Assembly: GCA_009777095.1 (NCBI GenBank) | Contig: WRMN01000001.1 | Coordinates: forward strand, 62,001-126,000 | Length of the DNA stretch: 64,000 nucleotides | Direction of reading: 5' to 3' | Source of the DNA: Bacteroidales bacterium | Lineage (GTDB): Bacteria > Bacteroidota > Bacteroidia > Bacteroidales > UBA932 | Shown: piece after piece, positions 51,410 to 61,356 of the stretch | Position numbering within the stretch: position 1 is the stretch's first letter | Layout of the letters: every line of letters starts with the position of its first letter | Notes under the pieces: model-generated | Databases searched by the model: none | The model's input: the letters and a program-made list of their open reading frames with translations, nothing else | Told to the model about the DNA's origin: nothing | Position numbers and translations under genes: made by a program

Positions 51410-51417
51410 TAACTTTG
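51410..51417 (+). promoter_or_regulatory. Helicase gene -7 box (TAACTTTG)
   Basis: TAACTTTG lies 27 bases before the helicase ATG at 51445. Confidence 0.5.
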
Positions 51418-51444
51418 CCAATAAATGTCAGGACTATAAAAAGT

Positions 51445-54400
51445 ATGTCGTCAAAATTTTTTACCAACGAGAGCGAAAACACCTTACTTAATAAGATTAA
51501 AGGAGTTTTTGAGCATAAAAACGTTCATTTTTTCGATGCCCTTGTGGGCTATTTTCGGGCTTCGGGCTATTTTCAAGTGCGACCGTTTATTGAAAAAGCA
51601 GCTGAAATTCGCGTGTTGGTCGGCATCAACATTGATGAGGCAGTTTACGATGCCAACAACAAAGGATTGCTTTTTACCGGAAACGAAGAAAAAAGCGTTG
51701 ATACCTACATTGACAACTTGAAAAAAGACATTCAATCTGCAAAATACGACAAAACAGTTGAAGACGGAATGTTGCAGTTTATCCGCGATTTGATTGAAAG
51801 TAAAGTGCAAATTCGAGTTTATCCAAAGCAGAATTTACACGCCAAAATTTATATTTTCCGCGAAAAAGAGAAACATGCTCACGGTTACGGTTCGGTTATT
51901 ACGGGTTCGAGCAATTTGACCGACAGTGGATTGCAACACAATTTTGAGTTTAATGTAGAATTACGAGAAGATGCCGACATAGAATTTGCAACCGAAACTT
52001 TTGAAAATCTTTGGCAGCAAAGTATCGAAATAGATAAAAAGTTTGTAGAAAAACTACAAACTGAAACTTACTTAAATGATTCGTTTACGCCTTTTGAAAT
52101 TTACTACAAATTTTTGATAGAGTATTTTGGGAAAAGCGTTGAGTATGACCCCAATTCTTTGCGCGATTTACCCAAAGAATACAAAAAACTTTCGTATCAA
52201 GCAGATGCCGTGAGCGATGGTTATGCGAAATTAGAAAAGCACAATGGCTTTTTCCTTTCCGACGTGGTTGGACTTGGCAAGACGGTGGTGGCTGCGCAAA
52301 TTGCCAAAAACTTTTTCTATCACAATGGGTTCCCCGACTATCTTTCAAAAACGCTTGTCATTTGTCCGCCAGCGTTATACGATAATTGGAGCGAAACATT
52401 GGAAAACTTCGGCATAAACGATTATAAGATATACACCAACGGCAGTTTGCACAAAATTCGTGATGCAAAACAATATGATTTAATTATTGTGGACGAAGCG
52501 CATAAATTCCGCAACGATACGGCAGAAATGTACGATGCTTTGCAGAAAATATGCAAAACACCTACTCGCTCGAATAGTCCGAGTGTTCGCAAAAAAATAA
52601 TGCTAGTGTCGGCAACGCCGCTCAACAATCGTCCCGAAGATATTGCCAATCAAGTTTATTTGTTTCAAGACAAAAAAGATTCAACACTCGAAATCAGTAA
52701 TTTGCAACATTTCTTTGCACCGAGGATTAAGAAATACAAAGAATTGAAAAAAGAAGATGATGTAAAAAAAATGGCGAAAGGAGTGAAAGAGTTGTACGAA
52801 GATATTCGTAATATAGTGATTGATCCGCTTACTGTTCGTAGAACTCGTACCGACTTGTTGGAAAATGAAACATATAAGAAAGATTTGGATAAACAGGACA
52901 TAGAATTTCCTGTGGTACAAATACCTCAAAAAATATTGTATCAACTTGATAATGAATTGGAAAAGCTTTACGACAAGACTATAAAAATCTTGCACCATGA
53001 ATTGACGTATTACCGCTATCAGGCAATAAAATTTCTCATTCCCGAAAAGAAAGCGAAATACAAAACAGCCGAATTGGCTTCCTTACAGTTGAAATTCATT
53101 ATGAAAACTTTGCTTGTCAAACGCCTTGACAGCAGTTTCTTTGCTTTCCGTGCCTCGCTCGAACGCTTTGCGTTGGCAACGGCAAATATGGTTAAGATGT
53201 TTAACGATAATTGCGTTTTTATTGCGCCGAAGGTGGATGTAAATAGATACATTGAAGAAGACCGCGAAGAAGAACTATTGCAGGTTTTGATAAACCTGCA
53301 AGACACCGACCCTACGATTGAAATATGTACAGCAGCCGATTTTGAAAAAGGTTTTGTTGAAGGTTTGAAACACGATTATGATATTCTACAAAATCTTGTC
53401 AATGAATGGGGAAAAGTAAATACAGACCCCAAATTAGATATTTTCAAAGAGTATCTGCAACACAAACTTCTATCTTCAAAAATCAACAAAGAAGGAAAAT
53501 TAGTGGTGTTTTCAGAATCGCAGGAAACAACCGATTATCTTTCCAAAGAACTTAAAAAAGCAGGCTTCGATAAAATATTGACTGTTAGTAGCAAAAACCG
53601 CAAAGATAAATTTCCGTTTATCCGTGAAAATTTTGATGCAAATATCAAAAGGGAGGAGCAGAAAAACGATTATAACATTGTGATTTCCACCGAAGTATTG
53701 GCAGAAGGCGTGAATATGCACCGCGCTAACGTGATTGTGAATTACGACACGCCTTGGAACTCAACGCGACTGATGCAGCGTATCGGGCGTGTAAACCGTA
53801 TTGGCAGTACGGCAAAAGAAGTGCATATTTTCAATTTTTTCCCTACCGCCAAAGTAGAAAACGATATTGAATTGAAAAAAAGGGCAATTCTCAAATTACA
53901 AGCATTCCATAGTGCATTGGGCGAAGACAGCCAGATTTATTCCGACGAAGAGATTGTAGAAAGTTTTGGGCTTTTTGATAAAACGGCACAGGAAGAAAAA
54001 GACGAAAAATTAACAATTTTGCTCGACCTTCGTAAATTCAAAGAAGAAAATCCCGAACTGTTTAAGCAAATCAAAAATATGACACTTCGCGCTCGCACAG
54101 GGCGAGAAAATTCTGAACTGTACGATACCACCATTGCATTTATTCGCAGCGAAAAACGAAATTCATTTTTGTTGCTTAAAGAAAACGAAGAGCCGCAGGA
54201 GCTCACATTTTTGCAGGCAGAAGAAATTTACCGCGCCAATAAAGAGGAAAAATCCGTACCGCTTACCGATAACCACCACACGCAGGTAGAAAGAGCGATT
54301 GCGTTTTTCAAACAGCAATTGGAAGTTGAAAAACAGGCAGAACGTGCAGTCGTTATCACACAAAGCCCTGCCGAAAAACAGGCCTTAAACTACCTTGACG

Positions 54401-54684
54401 CAATCATTAGCCTGCAACTTGCAGATAATCAGGAAAAAGAATTGTTAATTTTAGCAAAAGAAGCGGTAAGTTTAGGAAAATTTCAAAAATTGGCAAAGGA
54501 AGTCAGCGCTTTGGTTAAGAACCTCAAAAAAATATCGATACCGCCCGCCAAACAATTAGATGCAGTGATAAAAATTGCTAAAAATTATCCTTTGTACGAA
54601 AGCGAAGAGCAACAGGAAACGGAAAAAATAAAAGAAAACAAAAATTTTATACCTGAAATCATTATAAGTGAAAGCTTTAGCTAA
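51445..54684 (+). CDS. PLD-like nuclease-helicase (SNF2/SF2), defence-type
   Basis: A 1079-residue protein. The N-terminal part (about 20-210) is phospholipase-D-like with HAKIYIF (H132) and TGSSNLTDSGLQHNFEFNVEL, one HKD-type site. The rest is an SF2 helicase: Walker A VGLGKTVVAA (about 275-284), DEAH at 350-353, VSATPLNNRPEDI, and the C-terminal motifs STEVLAEGVNMHRANVIVNY and QRIGRVNRIGS. Such proteins accompany DNA methyltransferases in restriction systems (family knowledge); here the methyltransferase is two genes on. DNA is clearly more A/T-rich than dnaK. The ATG at 51445 is chosen over a TTG inside the -7 box. Confidence 0.9.
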   Translation: MSSKFFTNESENTLLNKIKGVFEHKNVHFFDALVGYFRASGYFQVRPFIEKAAEIRVLVGINIDEAVYDANNKGLLFTGNEEKSVDTYIDNLKKDIQSAKYDKTVEDGMLQFIRDLIESKVQIRVYPKQNLHAKIYIFREKEKHAHGYGSVITGSSNLTDSGLQHNFEFNVELREDADIEFATETFENLWQQSIEIDKKFVEKLQTETYLNDSFTPFEIYYKFLIEYFGKSVEYDPNSLRDLPKEYKKLSYQADAVSDGYAKLEKHNGFFLSDVVGLGKTVVAAQIAKNFFYHNGFPDYLSKTLVICPPALYDNWSETLENFGINDYKIYTNGSLHKIRDAKQYDLIIVDEAHKFRNDTAEMYDALQKICKTPTRSNSPSVRKKIMLVSATPLNNRPEDIANQVYLFQDKKDSTLEISNLQHFFAPRIKKYKELKKEDDVKKMAKGVKELYEDIRNIVIDPLTVRRTRTDLLENETYKKDLDKQDIEFPVVQIPQKILYQLDNELEKLYDKTIKILHHELTYYRYQAIKFLIPEKKAKYKTAELASLQLKFIMKTLLVKRLDSSFFAFRASLERFALATANMVKMFNDNCVFIAPKVDVNRYIEEDREEELLQVLINLQDTDPTIEICTAADFEKGFVEGLKHDYDILQNLVNEWGKVNTDPKLDIFKEYLQHKLLSSKINKEGKLVVFSESQETTDYLSKELKKAGFDKILTVSSKNRKDKFPFIRENFDANIKREEQKNDYNIVISTEVLAEGVNMHRANVIVNYDTPWNSTRLMQRIGRVNRIGSTAKEVHIFNFFPTAKVENDIELKKRAILKLQAFHSALGEDSQIYSDEEIVESFGLFDKTAQEEKDEKLTILLDLRKFKEENPELFKQIKNMTLRARTGRENSELYDTTIAFIRSEKRNSFLLLKENEEPQELTFLQAEEIYRANKEEKSVPLTDNHHTQVERAIAFFKQQLEVEKQAERAVVITQSPAEKQALNYLDAIISLQLADNQEKELLILAKEAVSLGKFQKLAKEVSALVKNLKKISIPPAKQLDAVIKIAKNYPLYESEEQQETEKIKENKNFIPEIIISESFS

Positions 54685-54735
54685 TTAGTTGGCAAAAAAA
54701 TGTTGTAATCTTACGCTTATTCGTTGAAAAAAATG

Positions 54736-54743
54736 TAATTTTG
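54736..54743 (+). promoter_or_regulatory. ATPase-methyltransferase operon -7 box (TAATTTTG)
   Basis: TAATTTTG fits TAnnTTTG and lies 54 bases before the ATPase ATG; no -33 is seen. Confidence 0.4.
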
Positions 54744-54754
54744 CACACTTTTAT

Positions 54755-54802
54755 CTTGATAAAAATGTAATAATTTGACAAAAAGTGCTTGATAAAAATG
54801 TA
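54755..54802 (+). repeat. 15-bp direct repeat CTTGATAAAAATGTA, two copies
   Basis: Copies at 54755-54769 and 54788-54802, 33 bases apart. The second includes the ATG and first bases of the ATPase gene. Confidence 0.8.
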
Positions 54803-56090
54803 TAGAACAAAGATTAGAGAGTTAATTCAATGGAAAATAAGCAAAGGCAGAAAGCCGCTTATTGTACAGGGGGCAAGGCAAGTAGGAAAAACTTGGCTCT
54901 TAAAAGAATTTGGCAAAACGGAATTTGAGCAAACCGTTTATGTCAATTTTGAAAAAGAAATTCGTTTACAAGAATTGTTTCTACAGGACTTAAACCCCAA
55001 GCGCATTATTACCGCTTTGGAAACATTTTTTGAGACAAAAATTGATGTCGAAAACACGCTGATTATTTTCGACGAAATTCAATCCGCACCAAAAGGACTT
55101 ACTTCATTGAAATATTTTTGCGAAGAAACACCTGAATATTTTGTTACCGCTTCCGATTCGCTTTTGGGAATGAATTTGCATAACAAAGTGTCGTTTCCTG
55201 TGGGAAAAGTAAATTTTTTGTATATGTTCCCGATGAATTTCTATGAGTATTTGCTTGCCGTAGGCGAAAGTGGTTTGTCAAAAGTGTTAGCGGAAAAAAG
55301 TTGGGATATATTACCCATTTTTACCGAAAAATTCAAAGAAAATTTGCGCTATTACTGCCATATTGGAGGAATGCCGGAAGTGGTAAATGATTTTGTCGTA
55401 AACCGTGATTTGAAAATGGTACGAAGAAAGCAAGAGGAAATTTTGGCAACTTACGAAAACGATTTCTCGAAGCATGCGCCCACCGAAATGGTACCTCGCC
55501 TGAATATGGTTTGGCAAAACATTCCGGCGCAACTCGCCAAAGAAAATAAAAAATTTATTTATGGCGTGATGAAAGAAGGTGCAAGGGCAAAAGATTTTGA
55601 ACTGGCAATTCAATGGTTAGTCGATTCGGGTATTTTGCTGAAAAGTTATCGCATTTCAAAACCTGATATGCCGCTCATTGCCTATCAAAACATGTCGGTT
55701 TTTAAACTGTTTTTCAACGATGTAGGATTGCTTGCCGCCAAATCGAATTTGGATTTGAAAACGGCTATTTTGGGAAATGATATTTTTACAGAATATAAAG
55801 GAGCGTTTACAGAACAGTTTGTAATGCAGCAGTTTAAAGCCGCCGAAATCGACTATATCGGCTATTGGACAAACGAGCGTTCAACGTCGGAAGTAGATTT
55901 TGTAATACAAAATGAAGGCGATATTATTCCCATAGAAGTAAAGGCAAGCGAGAATTTACAAGCCAAAAGTTTCAAATTCTTCTGCGAAAAATACAAACCT
56001 CAAACCGCCATTCGTACCTCTTTGTCCAATTTCAAAGAGGAAAATTGGATGACAAATGTTCCGCTGTATATTATCGGCAATTATTTTTAA
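54798..56090 (+). CDS. AAA ATPase with DUF4143 / PD-(D/E)XK-like C-terminus
   Basis: The 430-residue protein starts with the ATPase module (Walker A VQGARQVGKTWLL, about 23-35; Walker B TLIIFDEIQ, about 88-96; sensor FVTASDSLLG) and ends in a DUF4143 domain with SEVDFVIQNEGDIIPIEVKA (about 360-380), which has the D...ExK spacing of PD-(D/E)XK nucleases. DUF4143 ATPases are usually stand-alone genes of unclear role. Here its stop overlaps the methyltransferase ATG by one base (TAATG), so the two are translationally coupled. It may provide DNA cleavage (inference). Confidence 0.88.
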   Translation: MYRTKIRELIQWKISKGRKPLIVQGARQVGKTWLLKEFGKTEFEQTVYVNFEKEIRLQELFLQDLNPKRIITALETFFETKIDVENTLIIFDEIQSAPKGLTSLKYFCEETPEYFVTASDSLLGMNLHNKVSFPVGKVNFLYMFPMNFYEYLLAVGESGLSKVLAEKSWDILPIFTEKFKENLRYYCHIGGMPEVVNDFVVNRDLKMVRRKQEEILATYENDFSKHAPTEMVPRLNMVWQNIPAQLAKENKKFIYGVMKEGARAKDFELAIQWLVDSGILLKSYRISKPDMPLIAYQNMSVFKLFFNDVGLLAAKSNLDLKTAILGNDIFTEYKGAFTEQFVMQQFKAAEIDYIGYWTNERSTSEVDFVIQNEGDIIPIEVKASENLQAKSFKFFCEKYKPQTAIRTSLSNFKEENWMTNVPLYIIGNYF

Positions 56091-59000
56091 TGATTAACAG
56101 TATGACACAACAAAATTTACAACAAGCATACTCTCGCCAAAATTGGCAAACTTGGCTCGGCGACATTTTCGGTTCGCAAATGCAATTTGAAACCCAAGCA
56201 GAAAATATTGACATTGATCGTGAAAACATGAAATCCGTTCAGCGTTTTGCCGTTGTGAAACTTGCCGATGGAAAAAACCTTGCCGTATTGGATATTGAAA
56301 CCCGCGCAGGCGTACAGATTTCCCGCAATCGTGTGGGTTTGCGAGAGATAGTCGTTAGATTTATCGACCACGCTCGCTATCACGGCATTTTGGCATTTTA
56401 CTATTGTTCGGAAACGGCAGATTGTGGGGGCGTACTGCATACGCCCGAATACCGAATGTCGTTTATCAGCAGCGAGCCAAAAATTGACGACAATGGAAAT
56501 TTTATAGTTGAACATACCGCCCCCAAGCGATATACTTATGTTTTAGGCGAAAACGAAAAAACAAAAACGCCTGCCGACCGTCTGAAAATCATTGCCGCAA
56601 AAAACGGAAAGGCGACTTTGGAAGATATTCGCAATGCTTTCAGTGTAGAAGCATTAAACAAAGAATTTTACAAAATTGTGGCACAGCGCTTCTATCAGTT
56701 GGTAGGCGCCACCGAAGGAAAAGGATCAAAAGCAATTACTTACAAAAGAGCCTTGCAATTACCTTCTGTTAATCCCGATGATAGTCGGACAAAGAAAATT
56801 TATCAGGAATTTGCAGTACGACTGATAGGGCGAGCCGTTTTTTGCTGGTTTCTGAAGATGAAAAAATCGAAAGCGGGCGAGTCACTTTTACCCGAACATT
56901 TATTAAGCAGTAAGGCAGTCAAAGAAAACAATAATTACTACCATTCCATTCTGGAAAAACTCTTTTTTCAAACACTCAATACGCCAATGGACAAACGCAT
57001 AGAAGATTTACCCAAAGGCTGTGAACAAATCCCGTTTTTGAATGGAGGATTGTTTGAACCGCAAAACGATGATTATTATATGCCGAATAAATTCACGGGA
57101 CTCTCAAACCATATCAATACATTGAAAATCCCTGATGAATGGTTTTACGACCTCTTTACAAACTTGGAGCAATACAACTTTACCATTGATGAAAACAGCA
57201 TGTTGGACGTTGAAGTAAGCGTTGACCCTGAAATGTTAGGGCGAATTTTTGAAAATCTTTTGGCAGAAATTGACCCCGACAGCGGAGAATCGGCACGAAA
57301 TGCCACAGGTAGTTTTTATACTCCTCGTGAAATTGTGGATTACATGGCAACCGAAAGTTTGGAGAGTTACCTTTTTACCCAACTTCAAAACAAAAACAAA
57401 ACATTAACCATAGGACAAGATGATTTAAAAGAGTTATTTCTATTAGATGGTGTGATGGATGAAAATACAGAAATTGCAAAATATAAAACAGATATTTTAA
57501 ATGCTCTTGACCAACTGAAAATACTCGACCCTGCATGCGGTTCAGGCGCATTTCCGATGGGAATATTACAAAAAATTGTGATGGTTTTGCAGAAATTAGA
57601 CCCAAACTCCGAATGGTGGAAAAACAAACAGGTGGAAAAAATAGACAACGCCGTATTACGCAAATTGGTAAAACAAAAATTAGAACAAACCACTGTAGAA
57701 TATGCACGAAAAATAGGCATTATTCAGAACAGTTTGTATGGTGTTGATATACAGCCCATTGCCGCCGAAATATCCAAACTTCGTTGTTTCCTTACGCTGA
57801 TTGTAGATGAAAATATTGACGACAGCAAGCCCAACCGTGGCGTAGAGCCTTTGCCAAACTTGGAATTTAAGTTTGTAACGGCAAATACGTTGTTGCAACT
57901 GCCCAAAGAAAACGACTTTGGCGGTTTATTTAATGCTAACGACAACTTGAACGAACTGCATAAAATCCGCTTGGAATACTTACAAAGTTATGGCGAAGAA
58001 AAAAACGAATTAAAAGAGCGTTTTTTGAGCATACAAAACGACACATACAAACAGCAACTAAAAGATTTAGGAGCAGCAATAAATATCGATAGCAGAGCAT
58101 ATAAAATCAGTGCTTGGAATCCGTTTCGCCACGATAAAACAGATTGGTTCGACTCTGAATGGATGTTTGGATTGAAAGATGGGTTTGATATAGTGATTGG
58201 AAACCCGCCGTATGTACAACTTCAAAACAATAGTGGAGAATTAGCTAACCTGTACCAAAATTGCAGATACAAAACATTTGCTCGTACCGGAGATATTTAT
58301 TGCCTTTTTTATGAGTGCGGATACCAATTGTTAAAACCGCAAGGAAAGCTTTGTTTTATTACTTCCAACAAATGGATGCGAGCTGGCTATGGCGAAAATA
58401 TTCGAAAATTTTTATCCGAAAATACAAACCCCGAACTGTTGATTGATTTTGCCGGTGTAAAAGTATTTGAATCGGCAACGGTTGACACGAATATTTTAAT
58501 GTTCTGCAAGGATAAAAACCGACAACAAACACAGGCTTGTGTCGTAAAAAAAGAGGGTATAAAAGATTTGAGCGTTTTTGTTAGACAATCATCTACCGTT
58601 TGTCATTTTGGTGCAGATAGTTGGGTTATATTGTCGCCTATTGAACAACGCATAAAGGCTAAGATTGAGGCAGTTGGAACGCCGTTGAAGGATTGGGATA
58701 TCAATATCTATCGTGGTGTTTTGACAGGTTACAACGAAGCCTTTATTATTGATGGGAAAAAGAAAAATGAATTGATTGTTGAAGATCCCAAAAGTGCAGA
58801 AATTATAAGACCTTTATTAAGGGGGCGTGATATTAAACGTTACGGATACGAATTTGCCGATTTGTATTTGATTTGCACTTTTCCCGCATTACATATTGAT
58901 ATTGAAAAATATCCAGCCCTGAAAAATCACTTACTTTCCTTTGGCATAGAGCGATTAGAGCAAACAGGAAAAGAACACATTGTGAACGGAGAAAAGATAA

Positions 59001-59431
59001 AAGCACGCAAAAAGACCAATAATAAATGGTTTGAAACGCAAGACCAGATAGGTTATTGGGAGGATTTTTATAAACAAAAAATTGCTTGGAATCGAATTGC
59101 CAGCGAAAAACTTTTTTCTTATGTAGATGAAGGCATATTTATTCAAGATAGTATGCATTTTTTTACAGGTAATCACTTGAAGTACCTGTGTGGTATATTA
59201 AATTCAAAACTGTTTGCTTGGCTAATGTATTTAATAGTTGGTGAAGCCGCAGGAGGAAATGCAGGAAATGCCGATAATGTTAAAAACCTGACTGTTCCAA
59301 TACCAAATTCAAAAGTTGAACAAGAAATTGAAAAATTATTGGAAATCGAAAATTATAACGCAATAGATAATCTTGTTTTTGAAATTTATGGATTGACAAA
59401 AGAAGAAATTCTGTTTATTGAAAAAATATGA
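56090..59431 (+). CDS. Eco57I-type N6-adenine DNA methyltransferase with switchable recognition domain
   Basis: A 1113-residue protein. The N-terminus (about 40-150) has a conserved LAVLDIETRAGVQISRNRVG block. The methyltransferase core has motif I DPACGSGAFPMGIL (about 480-493) and motif IV IGNPPYVQL (N705-PPY). The C-terminal part from about residue 830 is the target-recognition region. Residues 828-908 are encoded by the left copy of a 243-bp inverted repeat; the ~205 residues after it can be replaced by inversion. Stop TGA at 59429-59431. An ATG at 56102 is an alternative start; 56090 overlaps the ATPase stop. Confidence 0.92.
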   Translation: MINSMTQQNLQQAYSRQNWQTWLGDIFGSQMQFETQAENIDIDRENMKSVQRFAVVKLADGKNLAVLDIETRAGVQISRNRVGLREIVVRFIDHARYHGILAFYYCSETADCGGVLHTPEYRMSFISSEPKIDDNGNFIVEHTAPKRYTYVLGENEKTKTPADRLKIIAAKNGKATLEDIRNAFSVEALNKEFYKIVAQRFYQLVGATEGKGSKAITYKRALQLPSVNPDDSRTKKIYQEFAVRLIGRAVFCWFLKMKKSKAGESLLPEHLLSSKAVKENNNYYHSILEKLFFQTLNTPMDKRIEDLPKGCEQIPFLNGGLFEPQNDDYYMPNKFTGLSNHINTLKIPDEWFYDLFTNLEQYNFTIDENSMLDVEVSVDPEMLGRIFENLLAEIDPDSGESARNATGSFYTPREIVDYMATESLESYLFTQLQNKNKTLTIGQDDLKELFLLDGVMDENTEIAKYKTDILNALDQLKILDPACGSGAFPMGILQKIVMVLQKLDPNSEWWKNKQVEKIDNAVLRKLVKQKLEQTTVEYARKIGIIQNSLYGVDIQPIAAEISKLRCFLTLIVDENIDDSKPNRGVEPLPNLEFKFVTANTLLQLPKENDFGGLFNANDNLNELHKIRLEYLQSYGEEKNELKERFLSIQNDTYKQQLKDLGAAINIDSRAYKISAWNPFRHDKTDWFDSEWMFGLKDGFDIVIGNPPYVQLQNNSGELANLYQNCRYKTFARTGDIYCLFYECGYQLLKPQGKLCFITSNKWMRAGYGENIRKFLSENTNPELLIDFAGVKVFESATVDTNILMFCKDKNRQQTQACVVKKEGIKDLSVFVRQSSTVCHFGADSWVILSPIEQRIKAKIEAVGTPLKDWDINIYRGVLTGYNEAFIIDGKKKNELIVEDPKSAEIIRPLLRGRDIKRYGYEFADLYLICTFPALHIDIEKYPALKNHLLSFGIERLEQTGKEHIVNGEKIKARKKTNNKWFETQDQIGYWEDFYKQKIAWNRIASEKLFSYVDEGIFIQDSMHFFTGNHLKYLCGILNSKLFAWLMYLIVGEAAGGNAGNADNVKNLTVPIPNSKVEQEIEKLLEIENYNAIDNLVFEIYGLTKEEILFIEKI
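58571..58813 (+). repeat. 243-bp inverted repeat, left arm
   Basis: Starts AGCGTTTTTGTTAGACAATC and ends AATTATAAGACCT. Matches the reverse complement of 60384-60626 throughout; the only difference I see is A at 58630 (C in the other arm), silent (Ile). Confidence 0.95.
59059..59083 (+). repeat. Degenerate copy of the 25-bp cassette repeat
   Basis: GGAGGATTTTTATAAACAAAAAATT differs at two positions from the copies at 59452-59476. It encodes the conserved EDFxKQKI turn inside the active recognition domain. Confidence 0.6.
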
Positions 59432-59449
59432 TTTTTCACTTTTTGAAAA

Positions 59450-59833
59450 TTGGAGGATTTTTCTAAACAGAAAATTATGTATAGTGAACTTACACAAGGC
59501 AGTTGTTTTATACTTGACGAAACACGCGGCTTATTTTCTTTGCAAACAGGTTACATTATTGTTGGTAATAATTTGAAATATCTTTTAGCTGTGCTTAATT
59601 CAAGATTAATCGAATTTAGTTTTAGAAAATTTTATTCAATAGAACTCGGTGGAAGTGGTTTGCGCTGGCTAAAACAATATGTTGAAAACATACCTATTCC
59701 AAAACCTAGTATCGAAATTGAGTTGCAAATTGAAAAATTATTACTCGAAAAAAATTATCAAGCAATAAATAAATTAGTTTATGAAATTTATAAATTAGAT
59801 AAAAACGAAATAGATTTTATTGATTTTCAATAA
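59450..59833 (+). CDS. Silent half recognition cassette (no start of its own)
   Basis: This 127-codon frame, beginning 18 bases after the methyltransferase stop, encodes only the C-terminal half of a recognition domain: EDFSKQKIMYSEL..., a LDETRGLF segment, LLAVLNSRLIEF, NIPIPKPS and the ending NEIDFIDFQ, the same order of motifs as the ends of the active domain (...KEEILFIEKI) and the inverted cassette (...EEIYFIENQ). It has no promoter, no ribosome site and only a TTG. It is a donor segment connected by the 25-bp inverted repeat at 59451-59475. Confidence 0.75.
   Translation: MEDFSKQKIMYSELTQGSCFILDETRGLFSLQTGYIIVGNNLKYLLAVLNSRLIEFSFRKFYSIELGGSGLRWLKQYVENIPIPKPSIEIELQIEKLLLEKNYQAINKLVYEIYKLDKNEIDFIDFQ
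59451..59475 (+). repeat. 25-bp nested inverted repeat, left copy
   Basis: TGGAGGATTTTTCTAAACAG followed by AAAAT, matching the reverse complement of 60145-60169 exactly; after one mismatch another five bases (ATGTA) match. Confidence 0.9.
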
Positions 59834-59836
59834 AAT
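59814..59836. repeat. 23-bp perfect palindrome between opposed cassette ends
   Basis: ATTTTATTGA-TTT-TCAATAAAAT. It contains the stop codons of both convergent cassettes (59831-59833 plus, 59817-59819 minus). T-rich flanks could let it act as a bidirectional terminator. Confidence 0.85.
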
Positions 59837-60626
59837 AGATTTCTTCATCAGATAATAGAAATAAATCACAAATTGATTTTTCAATATTTCCCAAATCAAA
59901 ATTATCTGTTGGTTTGGGTATAGGCAAATTTTCCAAGAATTTTTTCTTGTATCTATAACCTTCTTCACCTAAACCACCACCTGCATAAAACTTTTTGAAA
60001 AAATAAGTTACGGCTTTGGTATGCAATGCGTGATACAAAAATTCCAAATGGTCGCCTATCATAATAAAAGCAGTTGCTTCTGGGTAAAAATTACCTTCTT
60101 TATCAAGATAAAATTGAGGTTCTCTCACTATTTCGCTGTACATTATTTTCTGTTTAGAAAAATCCTCCATATACGCACAATTCCGCAGATTGTAGGGTGT
60201 ATCGCCTTTATCTTGTCGTTTTTTTAATTGTGGATAATACTGGTCTAAATGCCTTTTGATTGCAGGGTAATTGTTTACATCAACCGGTTTTAAGCCTTTT
60301 TCTCGAACGCCGTTATGCGTATTGATTAACCATAAATCAGCGAAATCATAATCGTACCTTTTTATGTCCCTGCCACGCAAAATAGGTCTTATAATTTCTG
60401 CACTTTTGGGATCTTCAACAATCAATTCATTTTTCTTTTTCCCATCAATAATAAAGGCTTCGTTGTAACCTGTCAAAACACCACGATAGATATTGATATC
60501 CCAATCCTTCAACGGCGTTCCAACTGCCTCAATCTTAGCCTTTATGCGTTGTTCAATAGGCGACAAGATAACCCAACTATCTGCACCAAAATGACAAACG
60601 GTAGATGATTGTCTAACAAAAACGCT
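59817..60626 (-). CDS. Silent alternative recognition cassette of the methyltransferase (inverted, no start)
   Basis: On the minus strand a 269-codon frame begins in the right arm of the 243-bp repeat with the same residues as the active gene (SVFVRQSS...SPIEQRIKAKIEAVG...AEIIRP) and then diverges: LRGRDIKRYDYDFADLWLIN, YMEDFSKQKIMYSEI, AGGGLGEEGYRYKKKFLENL, LPIPKPTDN, ending EEIYFIENQ. In-frame TAA lies just outside the arm (minus strand, about 60645), and no ATG precedes, so it is silent until inversion places it behind codon 908 of the methyltransferase. Confidence 0.88.
   Translation of the reverse strand, partial: SVFVRQSSTVCHFGADSWVILSPIEQRIKAKIEAVGTPLKDWDINIYRGVLTGYNEAFIIDGKKKNELIVEDPKSAEIIRPILRGRDIKRYDYDFADLWLINTHNGVREKGLKPVDVNNYPAIKRHLDQYYPQLKKRQDKGDTPYNLRNCAYMEDFSKQKIMYSEIVREPQFYLDKEGNFYPEATAFIMIGDHLEFLYHALHTKAVTYFFKKFYAGGGLGEEGYRYKKKFLENLPIPKPTDNFDLGNIEKSICDLFLLSDEEIYFIENQ
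60145..60169 (-). repeat. 25-bp nested inverted repeat, right copy
   Basis: Reverse complement of 59451-59475. It lies inside the inverted cassette at the EDFSKQKI codons, in the same reading frame, so exchange between the two copies would swap C-terminal halves in frame. Confidence 0.9.
60384..60626 (-). repeat. 243-bp inverted repeat, right arm
   Basis: Reverse complement of 58571-58813 with one silent difference seen (position 60567). The match stops sharply at both ends. Confidence 0.95.
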
Positions 60627-60635
60627 ACATAAAAA

Positions 60636-60657
60636 TTGTCTGTATTAATTTAGACAA
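60636..60657. promoter_or_regulatory. Candidate recombinase site, TTGTCT-N10-AGACAA
   Basis: TTGTCT (60636-60641) and AGACAA (60652-60657) form an inverted pair just outside the right arm; TTAGACAA also occurs inside each arm (58581-58588 and, inverted, 60609-60616). Spacing and size resemble a serine-invertase binding site; unproven. Confidence 0.35.
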
Positions 60658-60762
60658 ATAGCCCTATTTTCATTTCATTGAGCATGTTTCTGTTATGTGT
60701 TGAAAAATCACTATATTCCCTTTGATAATTTTATCACTCAACAATTTAAACAATGAAATAAT

Positions 60763-61356
60763 ATGATTTATGGTTACATTCGCGTAAGCACCGACAGACA
60801 AACAGTAGAAAATCAACGGTTTGAAATCAACAATTTTTGCGAGCAAAAAGTAATGGTTGTGGACAAATGGATTGAGGAAACCATTTCGGGAACAAAAACA
60901 GTTCAGGAACGCAAACTCGGCAAACTCCTCAAAAAAATGAAACGCGAGGACATTCTGATTTGTTCGGAACTCTCGCGCCTCGGCAGAAACTTGCTGATGA
61001 TTATGGGCATTCTCAACGAGTGTATGAACCGCGACATTCAGGTTTGGACTATCAAAGACAATTATCGCTTGGGTAGCGACATCAATTCCAAAGTTCTCGC
61101 CTTCGCTTTTGGTCTTTCCGCAGAAATCGAGCGCAACCTCATTTCTCAACGCACCAAAGAAGCACTTGCACGCAAAAAAGCCGAAGGCGTAATTCTCGGT
61201 CGTCCCAAAGGCAGCAAATCGAAAGTAAAAAAACTCACGGGTAAAGAAGCGGAAATCAAAACTTTATTAGACAAAAAAGTCTCCAAATCGGCAATAGCTC
61301 GTATTTTGGGTGTTCATCGACTAACGGTGGCAGAGTTTGTGAAAAATAATTTGTAA
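60763..61356 (+). CDS. Serine recombinase (Hin/resolvase-type DNA invertase)
   Basis: A 197-residue site-specific recombinase. The catalytic domain (about 1-135) has the nucleophile S9 in YIRVSTDRQ, the SELSRLGRNLL motif, FAFGLSAEIERNLISQRTKEAL and the RPKGSKS hinge; the C-terminal HTH reads SKSAIARILGVHRLTVAEFV. It is the size of Hin/Gin invertases. Its position 137 bases outside the 243-bp repeat makes it the likely enzyme for switching the methyltransferase. No clear promoter is seen. Confidence 0.94.
   Translation: MIYGYIRVSTDRQTVENQRFEINNFCEQKVMVVDKWIEETISGTKTVQERKLGKLLKKMKREDILICSELSRLGRNLLMIMGILNECMNRDIQVWTIKDNYRLGSDINSKVLAFAFGLSAEIERNLISQRTKEALARKKAEGVILGRPKGSKSKVKKLTGKEAEIKTLLDKKVSKSAIARILGVHRLTVAEFVKNNL

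What the first reader, a model, noticed from the sequence alone, without database searches (positions are those of the whole stretch)
58571..61356. Phase-variable methyltransferase: invertible recognition-domain segment plus its own serine invertase
A 243-bp inverted repeat (one mismatch seen) brackets a segment in which the minus strand holds a start-less alternative C-terminal domain for the Eco57I-type methyltransferase. Both arms start on the same codon position, so inversion swaps residues after 908 without breaking the frame (1113 to 1096 residues). A Hin-sized serine recombinase gene lies 137 bases outside. Invertible specificity genes are established for type I hsdS with tyrosine recombinases; inversion inside a single-chain Eco57I-type enzyme that is partnered with a PLD-helicase and a DUF4143 ATPase is, as far as I know, not a described system.
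Basis: partly seen in the sequence, partly recalled or inferred. Interest (0 to 1): 0.93.

Follow-up and report, generated by a model that had tools for sequence, protein, structure and literature searches.

The report
Flip-switched DNA-recognition end of defence enzyme
A bacterial anti-virus enzyme carries two interchangeable DNA-recognition ends on a stretch of DNA that its own flipping enzyme can turn around, so a cell lineage can change which DNA sequence it marks as its own; the same arrangement recurs in many unrelated bacteria, and two closely related Lactococcus plasmids were found in opposite orientations.

Summary
A 243-bp inverted repeat (one mismatch; 58571-58813 / 60384-60626) brackets a minus-strand alternative C-terminal specificity domain of an Eco57I-type methyltransferase. 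An Mpi-family serine invertase lies 137 bp outside. Inverting the segment in silico changes a 1113-aa protein into a 1096-aa one. The architecture is conserved: among 103 related stretches, opposite-strand arm copies and the invertase co-occur (23 both, 71 neither). The crossover site maps to about 17-24 bp at the outer arm edge (AGCGTTTTYGTKCAGCA): 98.6% identical between arms across 21 loci, against 40% just outside. Direct evidence of switching: the expressed cassette of Lactococcus plasmid pJM1F is 99% identical to the silent cassette of pUCCL629A, and the reverse pair also matches, swapped at that site. Recognition domains are two-part mosaics with three first-half classes; expressed and silent copies never share a class (23/23 loci). 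The conserved partner is a PLD-SNF2 helicase; the DUF4143 gene is incidental. Specificity switching is inferred: no methylome or reads were available. Filed as a new variant of a known kind: inversion-switched restriction-modification specificity, here in a single-chain MTase with a serine invertase. One systematic survey of gene-altering inversions (Milman et al. 2023) could not be read.

The parts
51415..54684 (+). PLD (HKD-type) nuclease + SNF2 helicase, predicted restriction effector; conserved upstream partner of the MTase
   Evidence: Pfam PLDc_2, SNF2-rel_dom, Helicase_C; PADLOC HKD+Snf2; HxK, GSSN, ExN, GLGKT, DE[AS]H, QRxGR conserved in 94-100% of 63 aligned homologues
54789..56090 (+). 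DUF4143/AAA_14 ATPase inserted in the operon; not part of the conserved system
   Evidence: Pfam; PADLOC PDC-S01 576 bits; seen in no other locus
56090..59431 (+). Eco57I/N6 adenine methyltransferase, 1113 aa, currently expressed form (first-half class A recognition domain)
   Evidence: PF07669 E 2.8e-41, TaqI_C; PADLOC REase_MTase_IIG; profile aligns residues ~682-1090 to CamA and M.BseCI
58571..60626 (.). predicted invertible segment, site to site
   Evidence: natural inversion of the homologous segment in Lactococcus plasmids
58571..58813 (+). left inverted-repeat arm, 243 bp
60384..60626 (-). right inverted-repeat arm, 243 bp, one mismatch
58571..58587 (+). left crossover site core (AGCGTTTTTGTTAGACA)
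   Evidence: arm-to-arm identity 98.6% over this 17-mer in 21 loci against 40% outside
60610..60626 (-). right crossover site core
59817..60626 (-). silent start-less alternative C-terminal recognition cassette (269 codons open from the site; first-half class B)
59450..59833 (+). extra second-half recognition-domain remnant that begins exactly at the hinge motif (EDFSKQKIMYSE)
   Evidence: TaqI_C 1.4e-09 to profile positions 37-118 only
59451..59488 (+). 38-nt hinge repeat, inverted copy at 60132-60169 (92%); possible second-tier exchange point
   Evidence: (I2)
60763..61356 (+). Mpi-family serine DNA invertase, 197 aa, only copy in the genome
   Evidence: PF00239; NCBIfam PRK13413 347 bits (cutoff 272)

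Best explanation
This is a restriction-modification-like defence locus whose single-chain adenine methyltransferase has a switchable DNA-recognition end. The Mpi-family serine invertase cuts and rejoins two short inverted sites (58571-58587 and 60610-60626, inside codons for SVFVRQ) and flips the 2056-bp segment between them. The flip moves the silent C-terminal cassette behind the fixed N-terminal and catalytic part (residues 1-827) in frame and parks the other cassette on the opposite strand. The two proteins (1113 and 1096 aa) carry different two-part recognition domains and so should methylate different sequences. The partner PLD-SNF2 helicase is the likely restriction effector against unmodified DNA. 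Shown: the repeat, frames, families, site, co-occurrence, natural opposite orientations in homologues, and mosaic structure of the cassettes. Inferred: that the adjacent invertase acts on these sites in this organism, that the two forms methylate different motifs, and that the helicase is the nuclease arm.
For: Repeat and frames. Mpi-family invertase adjacent. Both domains TaqI_C. Co-occurrence of opposite-strand arm and invertase, 23 both / 71 neither / 9 mixed. Arm-to-arm identity peaks at a 17-bp site whose variants co-vary within a locus: 18 of 21 loci have the same 17-mer on both sides, against a mean of 1.8 and maximum of 8 in 20,000 re-pairings. Silent frames open for 266-338 codons in 21 loci. 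pJM1F expressed = pUCCL629A silent, 99.2% over 496 bp, and the reverse pair 85.5%, swapped at the site with flanks unchanged. Other opposite-position pairs at 87-93% DNA identity. Expressed and silent copies always of different first-half class, 23/23; P(no match by chance) 8e-5 (one unclassified silent copy, L085, reads class B by eye). CamA and M.BseCI alignment covers the swapped end. PLD and helicase motifs conserved.
Against: No reads, PCR or methylome; for the window's own genome only one orientation is seen. In this window the arms are nearly identical over 243 bp, so RecA-type recombination could also invert the segment. Nothing shows directly that the two forms recognise different DNA, or that either is active. 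The pUCCL629A and pJM1F cassettes also differ beyond the half-domain hinge, so that pair reflects inversion plus module exchange, not a single clean flip.
Confidence: 0.87

Rival explanations
1. The inverted repeat is only a relic: a duplicated C-terminal fragment in inverse orientation, used at most occasionally as a gene-conversion donor, with no programmed inversion.
For: The nearest relative L025 (67% identity) keeps the invertase but shows no opposite-strand arm, and several loci have lost one part or the other. The window contains a half-domain remnant, a sign of decay or past exchange.
Against: Silent frames are intact in at least 21 loci across phyla; the crossover sites stay identical in each locus while the rest of the arms drifts to 76-79%; the invertase is next to the silent arm wherever both occur; a natural flip at the site is seen.
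Confidence: 0.06
2. The segment inverts, but by RecA-dependent recombination between the 243-bp arms; the neighbouring invertase serves some other target.
For: The arms are 99.6% identical over 243 bp in this window; recombinase-independent hsdS shuffling is known in pneumococcus (PMC6620402, listed).
Against: In most homologues only about 17-26 bp at the outer edge is identical while the rest is near 76-79%; the invertase is usually single-copy in its genome (15 of 20 genomes, and the window's own) and locus-linked.
Confidence: 0.05
3. The switch is mainly ON/OFF (active and inactive enzyme) rather than a change of specificity.
For: In L039 (same locus as L107), L071 and L088 the expressed end is truncated, while L039 and L088 keep an intact silent copy.
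Against: In the window and nearly all loci both cassettes are full length, and they always belong to different first-half classes, which fits selection for two different specificities.
Confidence: 0.1

Closest known systems
Phase-variable Type I R-M with inverting hsdS (SpnIII/SpnD39III, SsuCC20p, B. fragilis; survey PMC7394358)
   Same: DNA inversion between repeats swaps recognition-domain cassettes of an adenine methyltransferase system; a recombinase gene is at the locus
   Different: There the specificity is a separate HsdS subunit; where the recombinase class is stated in the papers I saw it is a tyrosine recombinase (PsrA, PMC7096588). Here the domain is the C-terminus of a single-chain MTase and the recombinase is an Mpi-family serine invertase
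BREX PglX/BrxX and BREX-related (BR) systems (PMC12839542)
   Same: N6-MTase of related fold (8c45, 9ewz top Foldseek hits) and, in Type-2 BR, an N-terminal HKD nuclease fused to a Swi2/Snf2 helicase
   Different: BR systems are defined there by a DUF499 ATPase (and DUF3780 in Type 2), which I did not see as a conserved component here; that paper mentions no inversion or recombinase. From memory, pglX loci with inverted copies and recombinases have been reported; not verified here
Type IIG/IIL enzymes (MmeI, BpuSI, BsaXI, DrdV) and domain movement in Helicobacter type IIG (PMC3077401)
   Same: Single chain with MTase and C-terminal recognition domain; best PADLOC class is REase_MTase_IIG; recognition domains move between alleles
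   Different: No conserved nuclease motif in the N-terminal domain and no confident nuclease fold match; helicase partner; movement by programmed inversion instead of homologous exchange. Known type IIG phase variation (C. jejuni, cited in PMC5903667) is, from memory, ON/OFF by simple repeats
Mpi global invertase of Bacteroides fragilis (PMC5903667, PMC10939037)
   Same: Same invertase family (NCBIfam PRK13413)
   Different: Mpi flips many dispersed regions; here the invertase is linked to one locus and flips coding sequence
CamA (C. difficile) and M.BseCI methyltransferases
   Same: Closest solved sequences across MTase and recognition domain (E 1.6e-52 and 7e-46)
   Different: Solitary or type II MTases without alternative recognition cassettes or invertase (from general knowledge)

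Membership tests
Inversion-switched R-M specificity system | Inverted repeats flanking alternative recognition-domain cassettes that join the gene in frame | tested here: met
Inversion-switched R-M specificity system | Site-specific recombinase at the locus | tested here: met
   Mpi-family invertase; linked in 23 loci
Inversion-switched R-M specificity system | Both orientations occur in nature | tested here: met
   For homologous Lactococcus plasmid loci; not testable for the window's own strain
Inversion-switched R-M specificity system | The two forms methylate different motifs | not testable with these tools
   needs SMRT or nanopore methylomes of locked forms
Type I R-M (hsdRMS) | Separate HsdS specificity subunit and HsdR | tested here: not met
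   Specificity domain is fused to the MTase; no HsdS or HsdR family hits among the locus proteins
Type IIG R-M | MTase and recognition domain in one chain | tested here: met
Type IIG R-M | Endonuclease domain in the same chain | tested here: inconclusive
   No conserved D...(D/E)xK in 32 aligned N-termini; AF2 model (pLDDT 86.6) has no confident PDB match
BREX / BREX-related systems | PglX above curated cutoff; BrxC/PglZ or DUF499 partners | tested here: not met
   PglX 89.8 bits against cutoff 500; the two partner genes here are a PLD-SNF2 helicase and DUF4143
DISARM | DrmD/DrmMI above cutoff plus DrmA/DrmB | tested here: not met
   DrmD 148.9 bits against cutoff 610; no second helicase-sized gene among the ORFs of the locus
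Mpi master DNA invertase family (PRK13413) | Score above curated equivalog cutoff | tested here: met
   347.4 against 272 bits

The most novel reading that the evidence does not exclude
A widespread, previously unnamed class of restriction-modification-like defence (PLD-SNF2 helicase + single-chain N6-MTase) in which a dedicated Mpi-type serine invertase flips recognition-domain cassettes, and in which half-domain modules also recombine at a hinge, giving a combinatorial, multi-specificity, self-diversifying defence shared across several phyla and on plasmids.
Probability: 0.5. Interest if true: 0.85.

Novelty: new variant of a known kind. Interest (0 to 1): 0.72.

Why it matters
Specificity switching by DNA inversion is well described for Type I systems with a separate specificity subunit. 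Here the same strategy appears in single-chain methyltransferases with a different recombinase class, in Bacteroidota, Firmicutes (including dairy Lactococcus plasmids), Spirochaetes and others. It gives a defined crossover site and testable predictions: two methylomes per clone, and a possible phasevarion. It also offers a natural modular code of recognition half-domains that could help predict methyltransferase specificity. Lactococcus plasmids already sequenced in both arrangements make a safe, simple test system.

Tried and rejected
DUF4143 as a partner: rejected, absent from other loci. The whole 243-bp arm as recombination target: rejected in favour of the 17-24-bp outer edge. N-terminal endonuclease domain: no conserved catalytic motif, fold searches gave no credible nuclease match. 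BREX and DISARM membership: scores far below cutoffs. The key survey of gene-altering inversions (Milman, Yelin and Kishony 2023) and the intragenic inversion paper (Chanin 2024) are not held, so prior notice cannot be excluded. A resemblance between the hinge repeat and the invertase site looked codon-driven and was not pursued. The silent domain has no single-sequence PDB match.
Full report
1. Observation. The repeat finder and a direct arm comparison confirm arms 58571-58813 and 60384-60626, reverse complements over 243 bp with one synonymous mismatch at 58630; homology continues inward at lower identity to 58872 and stops abruptly outward. Both arms enter the same frame. Read from the site the plus-strand frame is open for 286 codons and the minus-strand frame for 269, the latter without an in-frame ATG upstream of the site. 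In-silico inversion turns the 1113-aa protein into 1096 aa. Both C-termini match TaqI_C (PF12950), as does a 127-aa plus-strand remnant at 59450-59833. The recombinase (60763-61356) is 137 bp outside the right arm and passes the curated cutoff of the Mpi master-invertase family; it is the only match in the 2.05-Mb genome.

2. Neighbours. Upstream are a PLD-SNF2 helicase (51415-54684), a DUF4143 ATPase (54789-56090) and the MTase, whose ATG overlaps the previous stop by one base. In relatives the helicase lies directly before the MTase, but DUF4143 is absent; PADLOC scores it as the separate candidate PDC-S01. In 63 homologues the helicase's HxK, GSSN, ExN and helicase motifs are conserved in 94-100%, consistent with an active PLD nuclease. 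The MTase N-terminal domain has no conserved D...(D/E)xK motif and its confident model (pLDDT 86.6) has no credible fold match, so it is probably not a classical type IIG nuclease.

3. Conservation of the switch. From 149 related genomes and a scan of species genomes I collected relatives. Among 103 stretches including the window, an opposite-strand copy of the arm and the invertase occur together in 23 and are both absent in 71; arm only 4 (three at short contig ends), invertase only 5. Carriers include Bacteroidota, Firmicutes (L087, L088), Spirochaetes/Treponema (L091, L092) and a MAG assigned to Campylobacteraceae (L057). Three IMG/VR contigs have the same set. The invertase lies just outside the silent arm in both transcriptional orientations.

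4. Crossover site. Arms of 21 loci were compared position by position. Identity between the two arms of one locus is 40% in the 26 bp outside, 98.6% over a 17-bp core (AGCGTTTTYGTKCAGCA), 84% in the next 7 bp and 76-79% further in. Variants of the core co-vary: 18 of 21 loci have the identical 17-mer on both sides, against a mean of 1.8 and a maximum of 8 in 20,000 random re-pairings; mismatches 5 against a minimum of 38. This is the pattern of a site-specific recombination site, and it places the window's sites at 58571-58587 and 60610-60626.

5. Natural inversion. Lactococcus plasmids carry the same operon. In pJM1F and pUCCL629A the invertase has the same protein accession (WP_021164920.1), the MTase core is 92.6% identical and the downstream flank 93.5%. 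The expressed cassette of pJM1F is 99.2% identical over 496 bp to the silent cassette of pUCCL629A, and the silent cassette of pJM1F matches the expressed one of pUCCL629A at 85.5%; flanks outside the site stay in place and the exchange begins at the site GAGCGATTATGT...ACAAAAT. pUCCL635A and pLLUC147A have the same MTase core without the invertase next to it, apparently locked. Beyond Lactococcus, cassettes at 87-93% DNA identity sit in opposite positions in other species (L086/L094, L043/L047, L046/L107, L102/L118).

6. The recognition domains. Cassettes are two-part mosaics joined at an EDFxKxKI hinge. First halves fall into three classes (TFPSRHYDI, THNG, IPWHFP) across phyla; second halves are more diverse. 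In 82 pairs the first halves are at least 60% identical while the second halves do not align, in 20 pairs the reverse, and in only 10 are both alike. In all 23 loci with both cassettes, expressed and silent first halves differ in class (22 by the script; L085's silent copy, left unclassified, carries the THNG motif on reading), where random pairing expects about 7.7 matches and gives none with P = 8e-5. The AB and BA arrangements are both common (8 or 9, and 6), as free inversion predicts. In the window, the remnant 59450-59833 begins exactly at the hinge and shares a 38-nt inverted repeat with the silent cassette, which suggests, but does not prove, a second tier of exchange of half-domains. 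The MTase profile aligns to CamA and M.BseCI through the recognition domain, so the swapped residues correspond to the DNA-reading end.

7. Mechanism. Best supported: the linked serine invertase flips the 2056-bp segment at the two sites, fusing either cassette in frame to the constant catalytic part, so that the clone alternates between two methylation specificities while the PLD-SNF2 helicase restricts unmodified DNA. Shown by sequence: anatomy, site, natural flips in homologues, intact and dissimilar silent domains. Inferred: catalysis by this invertase, different motifs, effector role of the helicase. A minority of loci (L039, L071, L088) have a truncated expressed end, so ON/OFF switching may also occur.

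8. Comparison with the known. It works like phase-variable Type I hsdS systems (PMC7394358) but is not one: specificity is not a separate subunit and the recombinase is a serine invertase. Its MTase and helicase resemble BREX-related Type-2 components (PMC12839542), but it scores far below BREX and DISARM cutoffs and lacks their other genes. The pan-plasmidome paper (PMC6458302) lists the CP016750 plasmid, called pJM1D there, among complete Type II systems; the word invertase does not occur in it. Papers found on inversion surveys report hsdS and surface genes. The gene-altering inversion survey of Milman et al. 2023 was not available, so I do not claim first notice.

Noticed in passing
59450-59833: Plus-strand second-half recognition-domain remnant starting exactly at the hinge motif, with a 38-nt inverted match in the silent cassette; possible second-tier half-domain shuffling.
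   Followed up: partly
54696-56090: A DUF4143/AAA ATPase (PADLOC PDC-S01) sits inside the operon in this genome only, preceded by AT-rich imperfect direct repeats (54696-54802).
   Followed up: partly
L039 10431 (= L107), L071 10224, L088 6647: Expressed C-terminus truncated 88-160 codons after the site; in L039 and L088 the silent cassette is intact, so inversion there could be an ON switch.
   Followed up: partly
L151, L152 (pUCCL635A, pLLUC147A): Same MTase core in one recognition form with the invertase and silent cassette gone from beside it: apparently locked descendants.
   Followed up: partly
L106, L108, L111, L112: Contigs of several drafts end within or just after the arm, as expected if both orientations or the repeat break assembly.
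   Followed up: no
window 56090-56600: Conserved N-terminal MTase domain (R-V-x-x-R, W19, D60, R122) with confident model but no recognisable fold match.
   Followed up: partly
L025: Nearest relative (67% MTase, Bacteroidales MAG) keeps the invertase but shows no opposite-strand arm: possible loss of switching.
   Followed up: no
window 59000-60500: GC falls to 28-31% over the cassettes against about 50% in the flanking dnaK and formiminotransferase genes, consistent with horizontal acquisition of the island.
   Followed up: no
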